From the NCBI GenBank assembly GCA_021821025.1, contig JAKACY010000001.1:1-35552 (forward strand): a stretch of DNA of 35,552 bases, in the 5' to 3' direction. This document shows positions 1,249-20,804 of the stretch, in pieces. Source of the DNA: Bacillota bacterium. Lineage in GTDB: Bacteria; Bacillota; Bacilli; Alicyclobacillales; SLC66. The first letter of the stretch is position 1. The number at the start of each line of letters is the position of its first letter. Below the pieces are notes generated by a model. That model made no database searches, was not told the DNA's origin, and saw only the letters and a list, made by a program, of their open reading frames with translations. The translations under genes and the position numbers were made by a program.

Positions 1249-2475
1249 ATGGCTAACATCGAAAAACGTGGGGAATCATCTTGGCGCCTGTCGCTTGATG
1301 TGGGGTTTGACGCTAACGGCAAACGCGTCCAACACCGCAAAACAGTTCGCGTTGACGATCCCGACATTCTAAAGTCCAAAAAGAAACTCGAAGCGTATCT
1401 CCAAGCGCAATACGTCGCCTTTCGTGAACAGGTTGAATCTGGCCAGTACATCAAACCGGATCGATCGACGTTCGAGGACTTTGTGGCCGTCTGGAAAGCG
1501 AACTATGCAGACCATAAACTTGGTGCGTACACACGCCGAAATTACAACTACGTGATTACCTCACGTCTTCTGCCCGAATTCGGCCATATGGAGTTGCGCA
1601 AGATCCAGACGATGCATATCGTTGCCTTCTTGACGAAGCTACGTGACCCCGAGAACCGCCAAGATGGACACCATAAGCCTTTATCAACAAACACGCAATT
1701 AAACATCTACAAAACGCTGAAATCCATCCTTGACGCGGCGGTGAAGTGGAAAGTCATCGAGAAGAATCCGATGGATGGCGTGGATCGTCCAGCACCGGAT
1801 AAAGTTGAAAAGAAGGAACTGCGCACGAAAAAAAGATCCTACACACCTGAAGAAGCAGACCAGCTTGTAGTCGCCCTACAAGACGAACCCTTTTCGTGGC
1901 GTATGTATATTCTCGGCTTGATGATCGGTGGTTTTCGCCGTGGCGAACTTTTGGGCTTGGAGTGGCCAGAGGTGGACTTTGAACAAAACGGCCTGCATAT
2001 TAGGAAGCAAATTAGCGTCAACGAAAAAGGACGAGCTGTGGAGGCAGAGTTGAAAACGGAATCTTCGGAAGGTTTCGTTTCGATGCCAGGTTGGTATATG
2101 CGTGATCTTGCACGCTATCGTAAGCAGTGGTTAGAAGATCGTGTGGCCTACGGCGACAAGTGGATCGAGGGCAAGCAATATGTGTTTTGTGGTGACTATG
2201 GAAAAATGCGATATCCAAACACGCCTACCATGTATTGGCATCGATTTCTTGAAAGGCATTCTGAACTTCCATTTATCCGACTCCATGATCTGAGGCACAC
2301 GGCGGCTATGCTACTTCGGGACGAGGGCGTGGATCTTAAAACAATTCAGGAGCGACTTCGGCACTCCAAACTGTCTACCACCGCCGATTTCTATGCGCAC
2401 GAATCCGAAAAAATCAGTCGCCAAGCAGCCGATCATTTAGAACGCTTCGATCCCAAGAAAATCGTCAAACCCTAA
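1249..2475 (+). CDS. int: phage tyrosine recombinase / integrase
   Basis: N-terminal arm-binding/SAM-like region and C-terminal catalytic motifs (GGFRRGELLGLEW, RLHDLRHTAAMLLRDEGVDLKTIQERLRHS, TADFYAH). Confidence 0.95.
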   Translation: MANIEKRGESSWRLSLDVGFDANGKRVQHRKTVRVDDPDILKSKKKLEAYLQAQYVAFREQVESGQYIKPDRSTFEDFVAVWKANYADHKLGAYTRRNYNYVITSRLLPEFGHMELRKIQTMHIVAFLTKLRDPENRQDGHHKPLSTNTQLNIYKTLKSILDAAVKWKVIEKNPMDGVDRPAPDKVEKKELRTKKRSYTPEEADQLVVALQDEPFSWRMYILGLMIGGFRRGELLGLEWPEVDFEQNGLHIRKQISVNEKGRAVEAELKTESSEGFVSMPGWYMRDLARYRKQWLEDRVAYGDKWIEGKQYVFCGDYGKMRYPNTPTMYWHRFLERHSELPFIRLHDLRHTAAMLLRDEGVDLKTIQERLRHSKLSTTADFYAHESEKISRQAADHLERFDPKKIVKP

Positions 2476-15644: not shown

Positions 15645-16208
15645 TCAATTAAAGGCGCTTCCTAGCAGTGATAGCAACGATGCAGGGACCTGCGCAGGTT
15701 GCTTCTTCCCTTGCTTAGCCTTGTTTGTGACCGCTGGATTTGCGCTGATCTTGACTACACTCACTGTCGCCACCAAAAGCTCTTGGAGTGTGACGGACGC
15801 GCGTAAGCCATGGACTGTCGTGCTATCATCCTGTGCCGTCAGATTCTGCACCAGCATGTTCTGGTAGAGCCCAAGTCGTGTATAAACCTGCACGGGGATT
15901 CGTTGTTGCTGTAATTCAAATAACACTTGATAAGCCTGTACTGACCGTGACGAACCGCCCGAAAACTGCCCTGCTATAAAGCTTCTTGCCACATCCGACA
16001 TACCAATCGTCATATCTAAGGTGCGCGGCTGAAGATAGGCGTAATCGGATACGGTTGAGCCGAGTTGTACCGGATGTTCAGTGATAGTCAGCGTTGAGGT
16101 TGGTGACACCGTTAGAAATGCATCAAAGAACCAACCACCAATATTCGTTTTGGCGTACACATAACTTTTGATCGAGGGGGACGTGAGGTCGAGAATTGGC
16201 GATGCCAT
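15645..16208 (-). CDS. Dit-like / LysM-region baseplate protein
   Basis: TSTLTITEHPVQLGSTVSDYAYLQPRTLDMTIGMSD and position after the tape measure gene. Confidence 0.55.
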   Translation of the reverse strand: MASPILDLTSPSIKSYVYAKTNIGGWFFDAFLTVSPTSTLTITEHPVQLGSTVSDYAYLQPRTLDMTIGMSDVARSFIAGQFSGGSSRSVQAYQVLFELQQQRIPVQVYTRLGLYQNMLVQNLTAQDDSTTVHGLRASVTLQELLVATVSVVKISANPAVTNKAKQGKKQPAQVPASLLSLLGSAFN

Positions 16209-18115
16209 TAGCCAATCACCCCCCGGACATTATGGAGCGCCTTATTAAATGTGTGGTGAATAGTTGCCGCTGTCTTTTGTGGATCTGTAGCACCGTGAAT
16301 CGTGTTGTTTAGTGTGATGTGGACGGTTGAGCTTTTTGTGTTCGATTGAGTCTGAGGATAGAAATAGCTATTGGCCGCCGAAACCGCGCCGCCAAACTGG
16401 ACTAACGGAATGAGAGGAATCTTTACGCCAGGTATCAGATCAATAACTTTGATGAGGTTATCAAAGTTGGCAATGATAGAATTTATGGCATTGACAAATC
16501 CCGTTTCAATTCCCTGCCAAGCATACTGTGCACCGCTTAAAACGCCTGTCCATACGCTATCAAGGTTTTTTGTAAACGGACTTAAAGCAATACCGATCGC
16601 ATTCAAGGCATCTAAAACGATCGTTTTGATTGCATTCCATGTGTTCGTTCCTATTTTTTGCAAGTTAGAAAACTTACCCGTGAAAATATCAACGAGGCCT
16701 TGCAAGATGTAACTGATAAGGTCAACAGCTAACGATAATGCATTCACGATGACCCCGAATAAGTCGGTGAAAAATTTACCGAGCTGTGATAAATGAGAAA
16801 CGTTTTTGGAACTGGTTAAACTCGTAAAAAACGCGGCAAATGCAGCATCGATTCCTAATGCTATGCCTTTTATAGCGTTACCTAAACTCATGAATGAAGA
16901 AATAAGTCCGCTAAAGGTGCCGTCTGAATTAAATTGTGCCATCATACCCATAAACCAATGGCCGATATTGACGAATGTCTTTCCCAATCCGCTGAAAATA
17001 CTATTCATATTTTTGGCGCTCTTACTTGTTGCATCCACCCTTTTGGAAGCCGTACCAATTTTTAATAATTCCTTCCACATGGGAGCAAGCGCCGATTTAC
17101 CGCCGTGAATGTACGTTTGAAAGTCGTCAAAAAGTAGAATAGCTGCTGAGAGGATAGTCATGAATTGGCCGAGGGGGCCGGTGTTCCATATGAGAGTTAG
17201 AACGCCTAATGCCGCGCCAATCCCTTTAGCCCATCTGGGTAGATAGTTAGCCATCTTCACAAGCCAATTCCATACGTTCCCTAAAGCTTGTACAATATAT
17301 ATCCCCATCTGCATAAAGGAAGCCATAACGGCCGCTACCCTTTTTGTCCAAGTGGGCATCTGCTTGACGATCGCGCTATTGACCGAGTCAAGAAACCTTT
17401 GGACTTGGCTGATCGGTCCCGCCATATACTTGGTGAAGTAGTACCCGATCCACTGTAACGAGTAGTTAGCTTCTAGTTGCATTTGTGCGAAGCCAAGGGT
17501 GATATTCTGAATACTGCTGATCTGCTGATTGTAGTTGCTAGGTGTTTGCATCCGGAGCGCAACCGCGTGAAGCTTCTGGTATTGAGCTAAGAGAGTCGGA
17601 GATAGATACAAGTCTTGCAGATTGGCACCAAGAGCCTTGAGAGACAAACTGAACGCCATGGCTTGCGTCTGCGTCGTCCACATGGATCGCGATAGCATTT
17701 CCATCTTGATTTCTTGATTGCCAAGGCCGCTCAACACACCTACCGTAGCCCCCGCAACGGCTGTCGCAAACGTGGCCACGGCCGCCGATGCTTCCCCGAA
17801 ATAAAGAATAGCTTTCTGTGCATAGTCTTTGAGGGGTAGCGTGGGAGGAATGATGTTTTTCGTGCTTACATTCGCACTTCCCGCACTGTTAGAAGAAGTT
17901 TCATTTGGGACTCGTGGGAACTTAACGGACTTAATGGCTTTTTCTAGCCCCAATACCGCGAGTGCCGCTTTTCCAAACTCATATACTGCATGGGACGCGA
18001 ATTTTGTGAGCATCGTTTCTAAATCCGTTGTGGCTTTTGTGGTTTCCTGATAGGATGCTTTGTCGACAGAAAAACCCAACGAGACCATATGGTCTTTGAT
18101 TGTTTCAATACCCAT
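16208..18115 (-). CDS. tail tape measure protein
   Basis: Long hydrophobic/helical protein. Likely start at MGIETIKDHMVSLGFSVDK (18115) behind AAAGGGGA, rather than the ORF-track start at 18295. Confidence 0.85.
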   Translation of the reverse strand: MGIETIKDHMVSLGFSVDKASYQETTKATTDLETMLTKFASHAVYEFGKAALAVLGLEKAIKSVKFPRVPNETSSNSAGSANVSTKNIIPPTLPLKDYAQKAILYFGEASAAVATFATAVAGATVGVLSGLGNQEIKMEMLSRSMWTTQTQAMAFSLSLKALGANLQDLYLSPTLLAQYQKLHAVALRMQTPSNYNQQISSIQNITLGFAQMQLEANYSLQWIGYYFTKYMAGPISQVQRFLDSVNSAIVKQMPTWTKRVAAVMASFMQMGIYIVQALGNVWNWLVKMANYLPRWAKGIGAALGVLTLIWNTGPLGQFMTILSAAILLFDDFQTYIHGGKSALAPMWKELLKIGTASKRVDATSKSAKNMNSIFSGLGKTFVNIGHWFMGMMAQFNSDGTFSGLISSFMSLGNAIKGIALGIDAAFAAFFTSLTSSKNVSHLSQLGKFFTDLFGVIVNALSLAVDLISYILQGLVDIFTGKFSNLQKIGTNTWNAIKTIVLDALNAIGIALSPFTKNLDSVWTGVLSGAQYAWQGIETGFVNAINSIIANFDNLIKVIDLIPGVKIPLIPLVQFGGAVSAANSYFYPQTQSNTKSSTVHITLNNTIHGATDPQKTAATIHHTFNKALHNVRGVIG

Positions 18116-18179
18116 TTTCGCATCCCCTTTTTTCTCGAAATATAAAGTGTATACTAAAACTAAAAATAGGAGGGATAAT

Positions 18180-18383
18180 ATGTTATATTTATTGGCAATT
18201 CTGTTACCGCCTGTTGCTGTTCTTTTTTGTGGTAAGCCTTTTTCGGCAATCCTAAATGTAATTTTGACATTGTGTGGATATTTTCCGGGAGCCATTCACG
18301 CTGTTCTCGTCGTCAACTCGCATAAGCAAGATAATCGTTTTAAGCACCTTGAAGAGACCTTGATCACGCGCAGGCTACGGTGA
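18180..18383 (+). CDS. Pmp3/YqaE (UPF0057)-like small membrane protein
   Basis: MLYLLAILLPPVAVLFCGKPFSAILNVILTLCGYFPGAIHAVLVV; AGGAGGG ribosome-binding site before ATG 18180; TATACT -10-like box at 18150-18155. Confidence 0.85.
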   Translation: MLYLLAILLPPVAVLFCGKPFSAILNVILTLCGYFPGAIHAVLVVNSHKQDNRFKHLEETLITRRLR

Positions 18384-18396
18384 TCAGAGGTCTCTT
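18352..18396. other. 16-bp hairpin over two convergent stop codons
   Basis: AAGAGACCTTGATCAC / GTGATCAGAGGTCTCTT with one bulged base; no long U tract on either side. Confidence 0.6.
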
Positions 18397-19021
18397 TGTG
18401 TCGCTTCTTGCGCTCTGCGTTCATTCTCATACTTGATGGTCAAAATTTCATGGGCATCCAAAAGATCATCAAATGTAAAAACATCTTCGATGATATCTTT
18501 GTGCGTCCAGAATCCCGCTAAAACAGGAGCGAACAAAAACTCATCGATGTTTTTGAGCCTTACGGGGATGTAGTCAAGAGACCGCTCAGGAGTCCGCCAA
18601 GACCAGTCCCGGTAAAAAAACCCGATAAGTTAAACACCAGCGCGTGAACCGTGAGTGCCATGACGGTAATCACGTCCTCATCAAGTCCATTAACAGCGAA
18701 GGAGCCGTTTTCCGCTAAGACAGGTGTATATCCTGCCTTCAACTCTTCTTCGCATATACGCAAGCATTTGTCTTGCAGATAAGAGAAGTCAGACTCTTTG
18801 AGTTCCGTTAATTTCCCGAACATTTGAGCGATGTTGATTTGAGAAGTGTCTAAATCTTCTACGTTCTTAGCGTTTGCAACGTTGCCCCATTTCACGCCTT
18901 CAAACATAGGAGCAAGGAGGGCGGAAACTTTCAAAACGATAAATGAGCCATCCCTCGCGCTAAACTTCTTAATCCGAAATTTGCGTTCGTTGATCATTAC
19001 GGACTTATAGGATTCGCCCAT
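18384..19021 (-). CDS. tail assembly chaperone, -1 frameshifted G-T-type product
   Basis: Slippery T_TTT_TTT at 18620-18614; the -1 frame is open for 77 codons (YRDWSWRTPERSLDYIPVRLKNIDEFLFAPVLAGFWTHKDIIEDVFTFDDLLDAHEILTIKYENERRAQEATQRDL*). Confidence 0.8.
18560..19021 (-). CDS. tail assembly chaperone, unshifted product
   Basis: 153-aa ORF ending LSGFFTGTGLGGLLSGLLTTSP just past the slippery site. Confidence 0.8.
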   Translation of the reverse strand: MGESYKSVMINERKFRIKKFSARDGSFIVLKVSALLAPMFEGVKWGNVANAKNVEDLDTSQINIAQMFGKLTELKESDFSYLQDKCLRICEEELKAGYTPVLAENGSFAVNGLDEDVITVMALTVHALVFNLSGFFTGTGLGGLLSGLLTTSP

Positions 19022-19475: not shown

Positions 19476-20804
19476 TTATAGATCCACCACGACGCCAATC
19501 GTGACGTGTTCTAAAGCGCCCGCCATCTTCACGCACGCATAGATTGGGGGTGCCTGTCTAGCCACGATTTGCGTTGCGGTTTGACTCGCTATCGTCGCAG
19601 CTTGCACCAGATAACCAGTCGAAAGCGTATCACCTGTTTGCAAGTTCAGCACGGGCGCCGCTGTCCAAATACCGGGTGCAAGAATGCCGGCAGTCGCAGC
19701 TTGGCGACAGGCACCCGTCACGGCATTCACGAGTATCCCGACGCCACTATCCGTTTGTGGAATTTTGGGGCCCGATGTGAGTGCGTTCATGATGGCCGTC
19801 TGAATATTCGCCGTCAGGATGTCCAGGTTCAGAATTTGGTCAAACGGCGTGCCATCTGCCATTGTACCTTGCACAAGCAGATCATACGTATTTCCGTAAG
19901 CCGTGTAAATGTTGCCATTCCACCCCAAAATCGCTGTCGCTTGTGCAGTCGTCAGCACCTCTGGCGTAACACTCACTTCCGGCTTGTACGCCATTGTAAA
20001 TGCGGAATTGGCAAGTCCTGTATTTGCGCCCATCGCATAGCCCATCGCCGCAACCGCCGCGTGGGCAGTCGTACTATACTGCCCAAAGCTTCTGGACGCC
20101 TTGAGGGACTGAAGAGTAGACATGACGTTCGGTGTCGTGCCCGCGAGAATTGATGCGTCGGAGGTATCGTAAAAATACGCTGATGCAGGTGTAGCGGATT
20201 GAATAAAGGCGCTCACGGCTTCTATATCCGCATCCGTCGCGCCATCAGCGTAACCGGCATACCAGTTCACGTTGTTACTTCGGCATGCTGTCACCGCCTC
20301 AAGAACGGTTTCTACATTCGAAATGCCGGCCCCAATCGCGTACGCCGCGTTTGCCGTAAACGATACAACATCGATCGTGGTCGCGCCTGCGCTCGCAGCG
20401 GACGTTGTCGTCACTGTTTGCGTAGTACCACCAGTCCCAATGGTCAGCGTATCCCCAGATGCAACGGCCCCTGTTAATGGCGCCACATCAAGTGTGGTGT
20501 ACACTGTACCGCTTGCTAAAGCTGCCGCGAGAGTTGTGGAGGCCGTCCCTTGACGCCCAATCAGCACATTAGTTGGAGTTGGCGTTTGGGCGAAATAGAT
20601 TTCAGCCGCCGCGTATTCCGGCTCGGTGCCTGTCCAACCGCTCGAAAGCATATCGGCCGTACTGCTATAGAGTTCCGTTCGTGTAACATTGTTGATAATT
20701 GCGGATGGCCCGACAATCAGACCAAGATTAAACGTTGCCGCTTGTGCTCCTGCTGGCGATACTTGGACAGTCACGGCTACGATATTACTTAACGACTGGG
20801 TCAA
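19476..20804 (-). CDS. tail sheath protein
   Basis: DUF3383/sheath-like: MTQSLSNIVAVTVQVSPAGAQAATFNLGLIVG...EPEYAAAEIYFAQTPTPTNVLIGR; followed by tube protein. Confidence 0.85.
   Translation of the reverse strand: MTQSLSNIVAVTVQVSPAGAQAATFNLGLIVGPSAIINNVTRTELYSSTADMLSSGWTGTEPEYAAAEIYFAQTPTPTNVLIGRQGTASTTLAAALASGTVYTTLDVAPLTGAVASGDTLTIGTGGTTQTVTTTSAASAGATTIDVVSFTANAAYAIGAGISNVETVLEAVTACRSNNVNWYAGYADGATDADIEAVSAFIQSATPASAYFYDTSDASILAGTTPNVMSTLQSLKASRSFGQYSTTAHAAVAAMGYAMGANTGLANSAFTMAYKPEVSVTPEVLTTAQATAILGWNGNIYTAYGNTYDLLVQGTMADGTPFDQILNLDILTANIQTAIMNALTSGPKIPQTDSGVGILVNAVTGACRQAATAGILAPGIWTAAPVLNLQTGDTLSTGYLVQAATIASQTATQIVARQAPPIYACVKMAGALEHVTIGVVVDL
20319..20543 (-). repeat. shared virion module, copy C (tail sheath)
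   Basis: TLAAALASGTVYTTLDVAPLTGAVASGDTLTIGTGGTTQTVTTTSAASAGATTIDVVSFTANAAYAIGAGISN. Confidence 0.9.

What the first reader, a model, noticed from the sequence alone, without database searches (positions are those of the whole stretch)
18150..18396. Pmp3/YqaE-like gene placed antisense in the tail operon, stop-to-stop with the frameshift product
A complete small membrane gene (own AGGAGGG, TATACT box) lies on the plus strand between chaperone and tape measure. Its TGA (18381-18383) directly abuts the TGA of the frameshift ORF (18384-18386), and both sit in one 16-bp hairpin. Pmp3 proteins affect membrane potential and cation stress in hosts, so this may be a moron active in lysogens, or an antisense brake on tape measure expression.
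Basis: partly seen in the sequence, partly recalled or inferred. Interest (0 to 1): 0.66.

Follow-up and report, generated by a model that had tools for sequence, protein, structure and literature searches.

The report
Antisense Pmp3 moron beside tape measure
A temperate phage carries a small membrane-protein gene of the Pmp3 family, read backwards and from its own start signals, at a spot in its tail genes where related phages have nothing; it is most likely a lysogen-expressed gene that changes the host membrane, perhaps to block other phages, but that function is untested.

Summary
The gene is real. ORF 18180-18383 (+) encodes a 67-aa Pmp3/YqaE protein (PF01679, E 1.9e-13). It has AGGAGGG and a TATACT box and lies alone on the + strand, exactly between the tail-chaperone frameshift ORF and the tape measure gene (TMP) of a temperate myophage. 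The abutting stops and hairpin also exist, but the hairpin is not conserved. In 87 of 95 distinct junctions from related phages the same spot is empty (gap at most 25 nt), so the gene is an insert, a moron. A prophage in another family of the host order has an antisense pmp3 at the same junction, and the two genes show protein-level selection. Among 59 genomes of that order these are the only two Pmp3 genes found. A phage with an unrelated tail module has antisense pmp3 at the equivalent junction. Other inserts there include small hydrophobic proteins, and the HK97 superinfection-exclusion gene gp15 occupies the same slot on the sense strand. Best reading: a lysogeny-expressed membrane moron, most likely acting in superinfection exclusion at genome entry. 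That function is inferred from position and analogy only. The pmp3 transcript would run away from TMP. Pmp3 morons are already annotated in Paenibacillus larvae phages; the antisense tape-measure slot is new.

The parts
18180..18383 (+). pmp3 moron gene, 67 aa, two hydrophobic segments
   Evidence: PF01679 E 1.9e-13; phrog_38199, moron category, E 6.5e-20; hydropathy segments from residues 1 and 21; codon-position differences 14/7/35 against L040, p 1.1e-5
18150..18155 (+). -10 box TATACT, 30 nt before the ATG; no clear -35
   Evidence: same box at -29 in L040 and TATAAT at -31 in L142, -38 in L151; chance about 6.6% per site
18168..18174 (+). Shine-Dalgarno AGGAGGG of pmp3
   Evidence: sequence; only + strand frame of the late region with both SD and -10
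18352..18396 (.). hairpin holding the stops of both convergent ORFs; possible weak + strand terminator (tail TTTGTGT)
   Evidence: z -3.75 and -6.14; single perfect copy in the genome; absent in L040, L142, L151
18384..18620 (-). -1 frameshift extension of the tail assembly chaperone (open frame; entered by slippage, no start of its own needed)
   Evidence: phrog_4364; conserved across relatives
18611..18623 (-). slippery run GGGTTTTTTTACC, in frame GGT TTT TTT
18560..19021 (-). tail assembly chaperone
   Evidence: PF21822 E 3.1e-15
16208..18115 (-). tape measure protein, ATG at 18115, SD AAGGGG about 18124-18129 next to the pmp3 promoter
   Evidence: tape measure PHROGs; N-terminus IETIKxxxVSLGF matches relatives
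1249..2475 (+). integrase: the element is temperate
   Evidence: phrog_1 E 6.9e-61

Best explanation
The Pmp3 gene is a stand-alone moron. It was inserted on the strand opposite to the late operon, at the junction between the chaperone frameshift ORF and the tape measure gene. It is read from its own promoter, independently of late transcription, so it can be expressed while the phage is a silent prophage (inferred). It makes a small two-helix protein that sits in the host's cytoplasmic membrane (family and hydropathy shown, location inferred). There it most likely acts as a superinfection-exclusion protein: it interferes with the membrane step of genome delivery by incoming phages, a step in which the tape measure protein takes part (inferred from the slot, which HK97 gp15 also occupies, and from the kind of proteins found there). 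That it is a lysogen-expressed membrane moron I hold at about 0.85; that exclusion is its function, at about 0.4.
For: Insertion: 87 of 95 distinct related junctions have a gap of -22 to +25 nt and 8 have inserts; the window's gap is 268 nt. The unit has 39% GC against 50% for the window, 3rd percentile. Recurrence: the prophage G041/L040, in another family of the same order, has antisense pmp3 at the same junction with the same -10 spacing. Selection: codon differences 14/7/35. Host: 2 of 59 genomes of the order have Pmp3, both at this prophage site; two other prophages of the order, same tail clade (100/99), have an empty junction. Slot: an unrelated tail module (L142) has antisense pmp3 between its chaperone-position genes and TMP. 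L043 and L157 carry other small hydrophobic proteins in the window's junction; L157 shows TTGAAA-17-TATAAT and a terminator of its own. HK97 gp15, a superinfection-exclusion moron, lies between frameshift product and TMP; [quoted passage not shown] L239, a sister of L151, has an antisense lipobox protein where L151 has pmp3; changes in the tape measure protein overcome exclusion by the lipoprotein Ltp (PMC10883804).
Against: No exclusion or expression data exist. Pmp3 is not homologous to gp15 and matches no PADLOC model. Most Pmp3-bearing phage contigs carry it elsewhere: near the integrase, lysis or terminase genes. That fits a general host-fitness moron as well, and weakens a specific tie to TMP. 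Pmp3 is common in bacterial chromosomes, where no exclusion role is known to me. The known exclusion cases with a tape measure link are phages with long non-contractile tails, whereas this one has a contractile tail.
Confidence: 0.45

Rival explanations
1. Host-fitness moron: Pmp3 is made in the lysogen and stabilises membrane potential or ion balance under salt, pH or envelope stress, giving a host that lacks its own Pmp3 a benefit. The place next to TMP only marks a tolerant insertion site.
For: Pmp3/RCI2 proteins are linked to ion homeostasis and salt stress in plants (PMC3278423). In the host order 57 of 59 genomes have no Pmp3 and the other two have only the prophage gene. Pmp3 morons in other phages sit in ordinary lysogenic-conversion positions.
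Against: No stress data for any bacterial or phage Pmp3 were found here; the link is from eukaryotes. It does not explain why antisense membrane proteins recur beside TMP in separate tail modules.
Confidence: 0.35
2. Antisense regulation: transcription from the pmp3 promoter interferes with late transcription into TMP and the genes after it, during lysogeny or early lysis; the protein is secondary.
For: The promoter faces the late operon, just upstream of the TMP ribosome site; antisense orientation in four phages.
Against: The RNA would pair only with the short region before TMP and the frameshift ORF, not with TMP. The codon-position pattern shows that the protein is what is conserved. Nearly all relatives do without it. 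HK97 gp15, L043 and L157 are on the sense strand.
Confidence: 0.08
3. Virion or lysis role: Pmp3 is a late protein that helps tail assembly or lysis.
For: Location in the tail module only.
Against: Opposite strand to the late operon, own start signals, absent from nearly all relatives.
Confidence: 0.04

Closest known systems
HK97 gp15 moron (superinfection exclusion)
   Same: Small membrane-type protein (62 aa, hydrophobic N-terminus) in exactly the same slot, between frameshifted chaperone and TMP, with an annotated terminator
   Different: Sense strand, no sequence similarity, long non-contractile tail, enterobacterial host
Pmp3-like morons of Paenibacillus larvae phages (Lily, Norbert, Riker, BN12, phiERICV; phrog_38199)
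   Same: Same protein family carried by temperate phages
   Different: Lie between lysis genes and the integrase/repressor region, not beside TMP; 46-53% identity over part of the protein
Prophage of G041 (L040/L144), same host order
   Same: Antisense pmp3, same junction, same -10 spacing; same tail clade
   Different: 54% identical; pmp3 end overlaps the frameshift ORF by about 74 nt; no shared hairpin
TP-J34 Ltp and P22 SieA exclusion proteins
   Same: Prophage-made membrane-associated proteins acting at DNA entry
   Different: Other proteins at other genome positions; homology not tested here

Membership tests
Pmp3/YqaE/RCI2 (PF01679) | profile score above the curated cut-off | tested here: met
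   50.6 bits vs 22.9, residues 1-45 of 67
Pmp3/YqaE/RCI2 (PF01679) | about 50-70 aa with two membrane helices and the conserved motif | tested here: met
   two hydrophobic segments; family-wide invariant residues kept; AlphaFold2 gives helices 2-17 and 20-66 but at low confidence, pLDDT 68
Pmp3/YqaE/RCI2 (PF01679) | affects membrane potential or cation tolerance | not testable with these tools
   needs bench work
phage moron | inserted between genes that are contiguous in relatives | tested here: met
   87 of 95 junctions tight
phage moron | base composition unlike its surroundings | tested here: met
   39% against 50% GC, 3rd percentile
phage moron | own promoter | tested here: inconclusive
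   conserved -10 at about -30 in three phages but no -35 and no hit in the general scan
phage moron | own terminator | tested here: inconclusive
   strong hairpin with weak T run, not conserved
phage moron | expressed from the prophage | not testable with these tools
   no RNA data
HK97 gp15-type superinfection exclusion | position between frameshifted chaperone and TMP | tested here: met
   opposite strand
HK97 gp15-type superinfection exclusion | homology to gp15 | tested here: not met
   no alignment
HK97 gp15-type superinfection exclusion | blocks DNA entry of phages | not testable with these tools
   needs bench work

The most novel reading that the evidence does not exclude
Pmp3-family proteins, whose bacterial role is unclear, serve temperate phages as superinfection-exclusion factors that act on tape-measure-dependent genome entry, and the chaperone-TMP junction is a recurrent, cross-phage docking site for membrane-anchored exclusion genes on either strand.
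Probability: 0.3. Interest if true: 0.75.

Novelty: new variant of a known kind. Interest (0 to 1): 0.5.

Why it matters
Pmp3 is a widespread small membrane protein whose role in bacteria is unclear. Two prophages of one host order carry it at one exact spot, in hosts that otherwise lack it, which gives a clean system to ask what it does. If it excludes phages, the chaperone-tape measure junction becomes a simple place to look for unknown exclusion proteins in phage genomes.

Tried and rejected
(1) Chance ORF: rejected by family score, start signals and codon pattern. (2) TMP starting at 18295 over pmp3: rejected, since the ATG at 18115 matches relatives' N-termini and the upstream frame is closed in L040. 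(3) Shared hairpin as a conserved regulator: rejected. (4) Common origin of the window and L040 pmp3: undecided. The window protein is nearer to Methylococcales proteins (72%) than to L040 (54%), but 60 columns cannot resolve it; the sister hypothesis is not rejected (AU p 0.30), so one gain with losses and two gains are both open. (5) Searches of viral contigs with the window's Pmp3 or chaperone alone gave nothing; alignments worked. (6) Naming the host: not possible with the tools. (7) PADLOC and NCBIfam gave no useful name. (8) Fold search was not run because the model confidence is low. (9) The 82-aa and 148-aa sense-strand frames at the L151/L239 slot are doubtful genes.

Full report
What is there. 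The window is the whole contig C183 of a 2.5 Mb draft genome and holds a temperate myophage: integrase at 1249-2475, endolysin, tail fibres, baseplate hub, tape measure, chaperone, tube, contractile sheath, capsid, portal, terminase, primase. The structural genes are on the - strand. At 18180-18383 on the + strand lies a 67-aa ORF that is a clear Pmp3/YqaE protein (PHROG 38199, classed as a moron). Among 382 ATG frames on the + strand of the late region it is the only one with both a perfect Shine-Dalgarno and a -10 box.

It is an insert. I fetched relatives by the tail sheath and by an alignment of the chaperone frameshift segment. In 95 distinct junctions the distance between the frameshift stop and the TMP start is -22 to +25 nt in 87. 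Eight have inserts: L040 (antisense pmp3), L043 and L157 (small hydrophobic proteins, sense), L102 and L229 (read by eye as homing-endonuclease types, no profile run), L114 (a second tube-like gene), and L078 and L218 (no clear gene). The window, with 268 nt, is a ninth. The unit's GC is 39% against 50%.

It recurs and is under selection. L040 is a prophage of genome G041, in another family of the host order. It has pmp3 in the same place and orientation, TATACT at -29 and AAAGGAGGGG. The two proteins are 54% identical. Over the core 47 codons differences fall 14, 7 and 35 at codon positions 1, 2 and 3 (p 1.1e-5), the mark of a conserved protein. Four prophages of the order form one tail clade (100/99): two have pmp3 and two, G018 and G034, have tight junctions. 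In 59 genomes of the order the only two Pmp3 genes are these two prophage genes; some of the genomes are drafts, including the window's own at 81% completeness. So Pmp3 is a function that the prophage brings in. Whether there was one gain or two cannot be settled.

The slot. Using both proteins, 16 viral contigs with Pmp3 were found. In L142/L143 antisense pmp3, with TATAAT at -31, lies between the chaperone-position genes and the TMP of an unrelated tail module, again with abutting stops. Its TMP relatives show no pmp3 there. In L151 it lies antisense directly after TMP; at that slot its sister L239 has instead an antisense ORF with a lipobox (MKWTIVLIAALALGAAACGGG), below a shared stretch CCTTGACAAAG. 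Elsewhere Pmp3 sits near integrase, lysis or terminase genes. HK97 has its moron gp15 exactly between frameshift product and TMP. [quoted passage not shown] gp15 and Pmp3 are not homologous.

How it works. The gene's promoter is separate from the late operon, so it can be read in the lysogen (inference). The product is a small two-helix membrane protein. The slot, the recurrence of membrane-type inserts there, and the HK97 parallel point to exclusion of other phages at genome entry (about 0.4). A host-fitness role through membrane potential is nearly as likely (0.35). The antisense brake is unlikely (0.08): the RNA runs away from TMP and the protein is what is conserved. The count of membrane-type inserts is small, and I did not test enrichment over all phage inserts.

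Novelty. Pmp3-type morons are already annotated in Paenibacillus larvae phages (PMC9341999) and gp15-type morons are known. The antisense Pmp3 in the chaperone-tape measure slot, repeated in separate phages, is a new variant.

Noticed in passing
window 19476-20804 (-), residues about 91-163: The tail sheath has an insert of roughly 70 residues that is absent in most relatives, whose matches skip that segment.
   Followed up: no
L043:10273-10497 and L157:830-1057: Small hydrophobic proteins of about 75 aa on the sense strand in the chaperone-TMP junction, weakly alike (E 4e-4); L157 has TTGAAA-17-TATAAT and a terminator of its own.
   Followed up: partly
L239:5848-6213 (-): Antisense ORF with a lipobox directly after TMP, at the slot where sister phage L151 has pmp3.
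   Followed up: partly
L124:5001-5138 (Paenibacillus phage PG1 10862-10999): Pmp3-like gene that is not annotated in the public record.
   Followed up: no
L140: Prophage with a primase 76% identical to the window's and its own Pmp3 just before the terminase genes.
   Followed up: no
L114:5508-6085: A second tube-like gene lies between the frameshift ORF and TMP.
   Followed up: no
window 18180-18383 (P0001) against PDB 7ueb/8gwa: The nearest solved relative is PscF (also named Ric1), a 58-aa chain (E 1.2e-4); from memory, a small subunit of a photosynthetic reaction centre, which would suggest that Pmp3-like proteins can bind larger membrane complexes.
   Followed up: no
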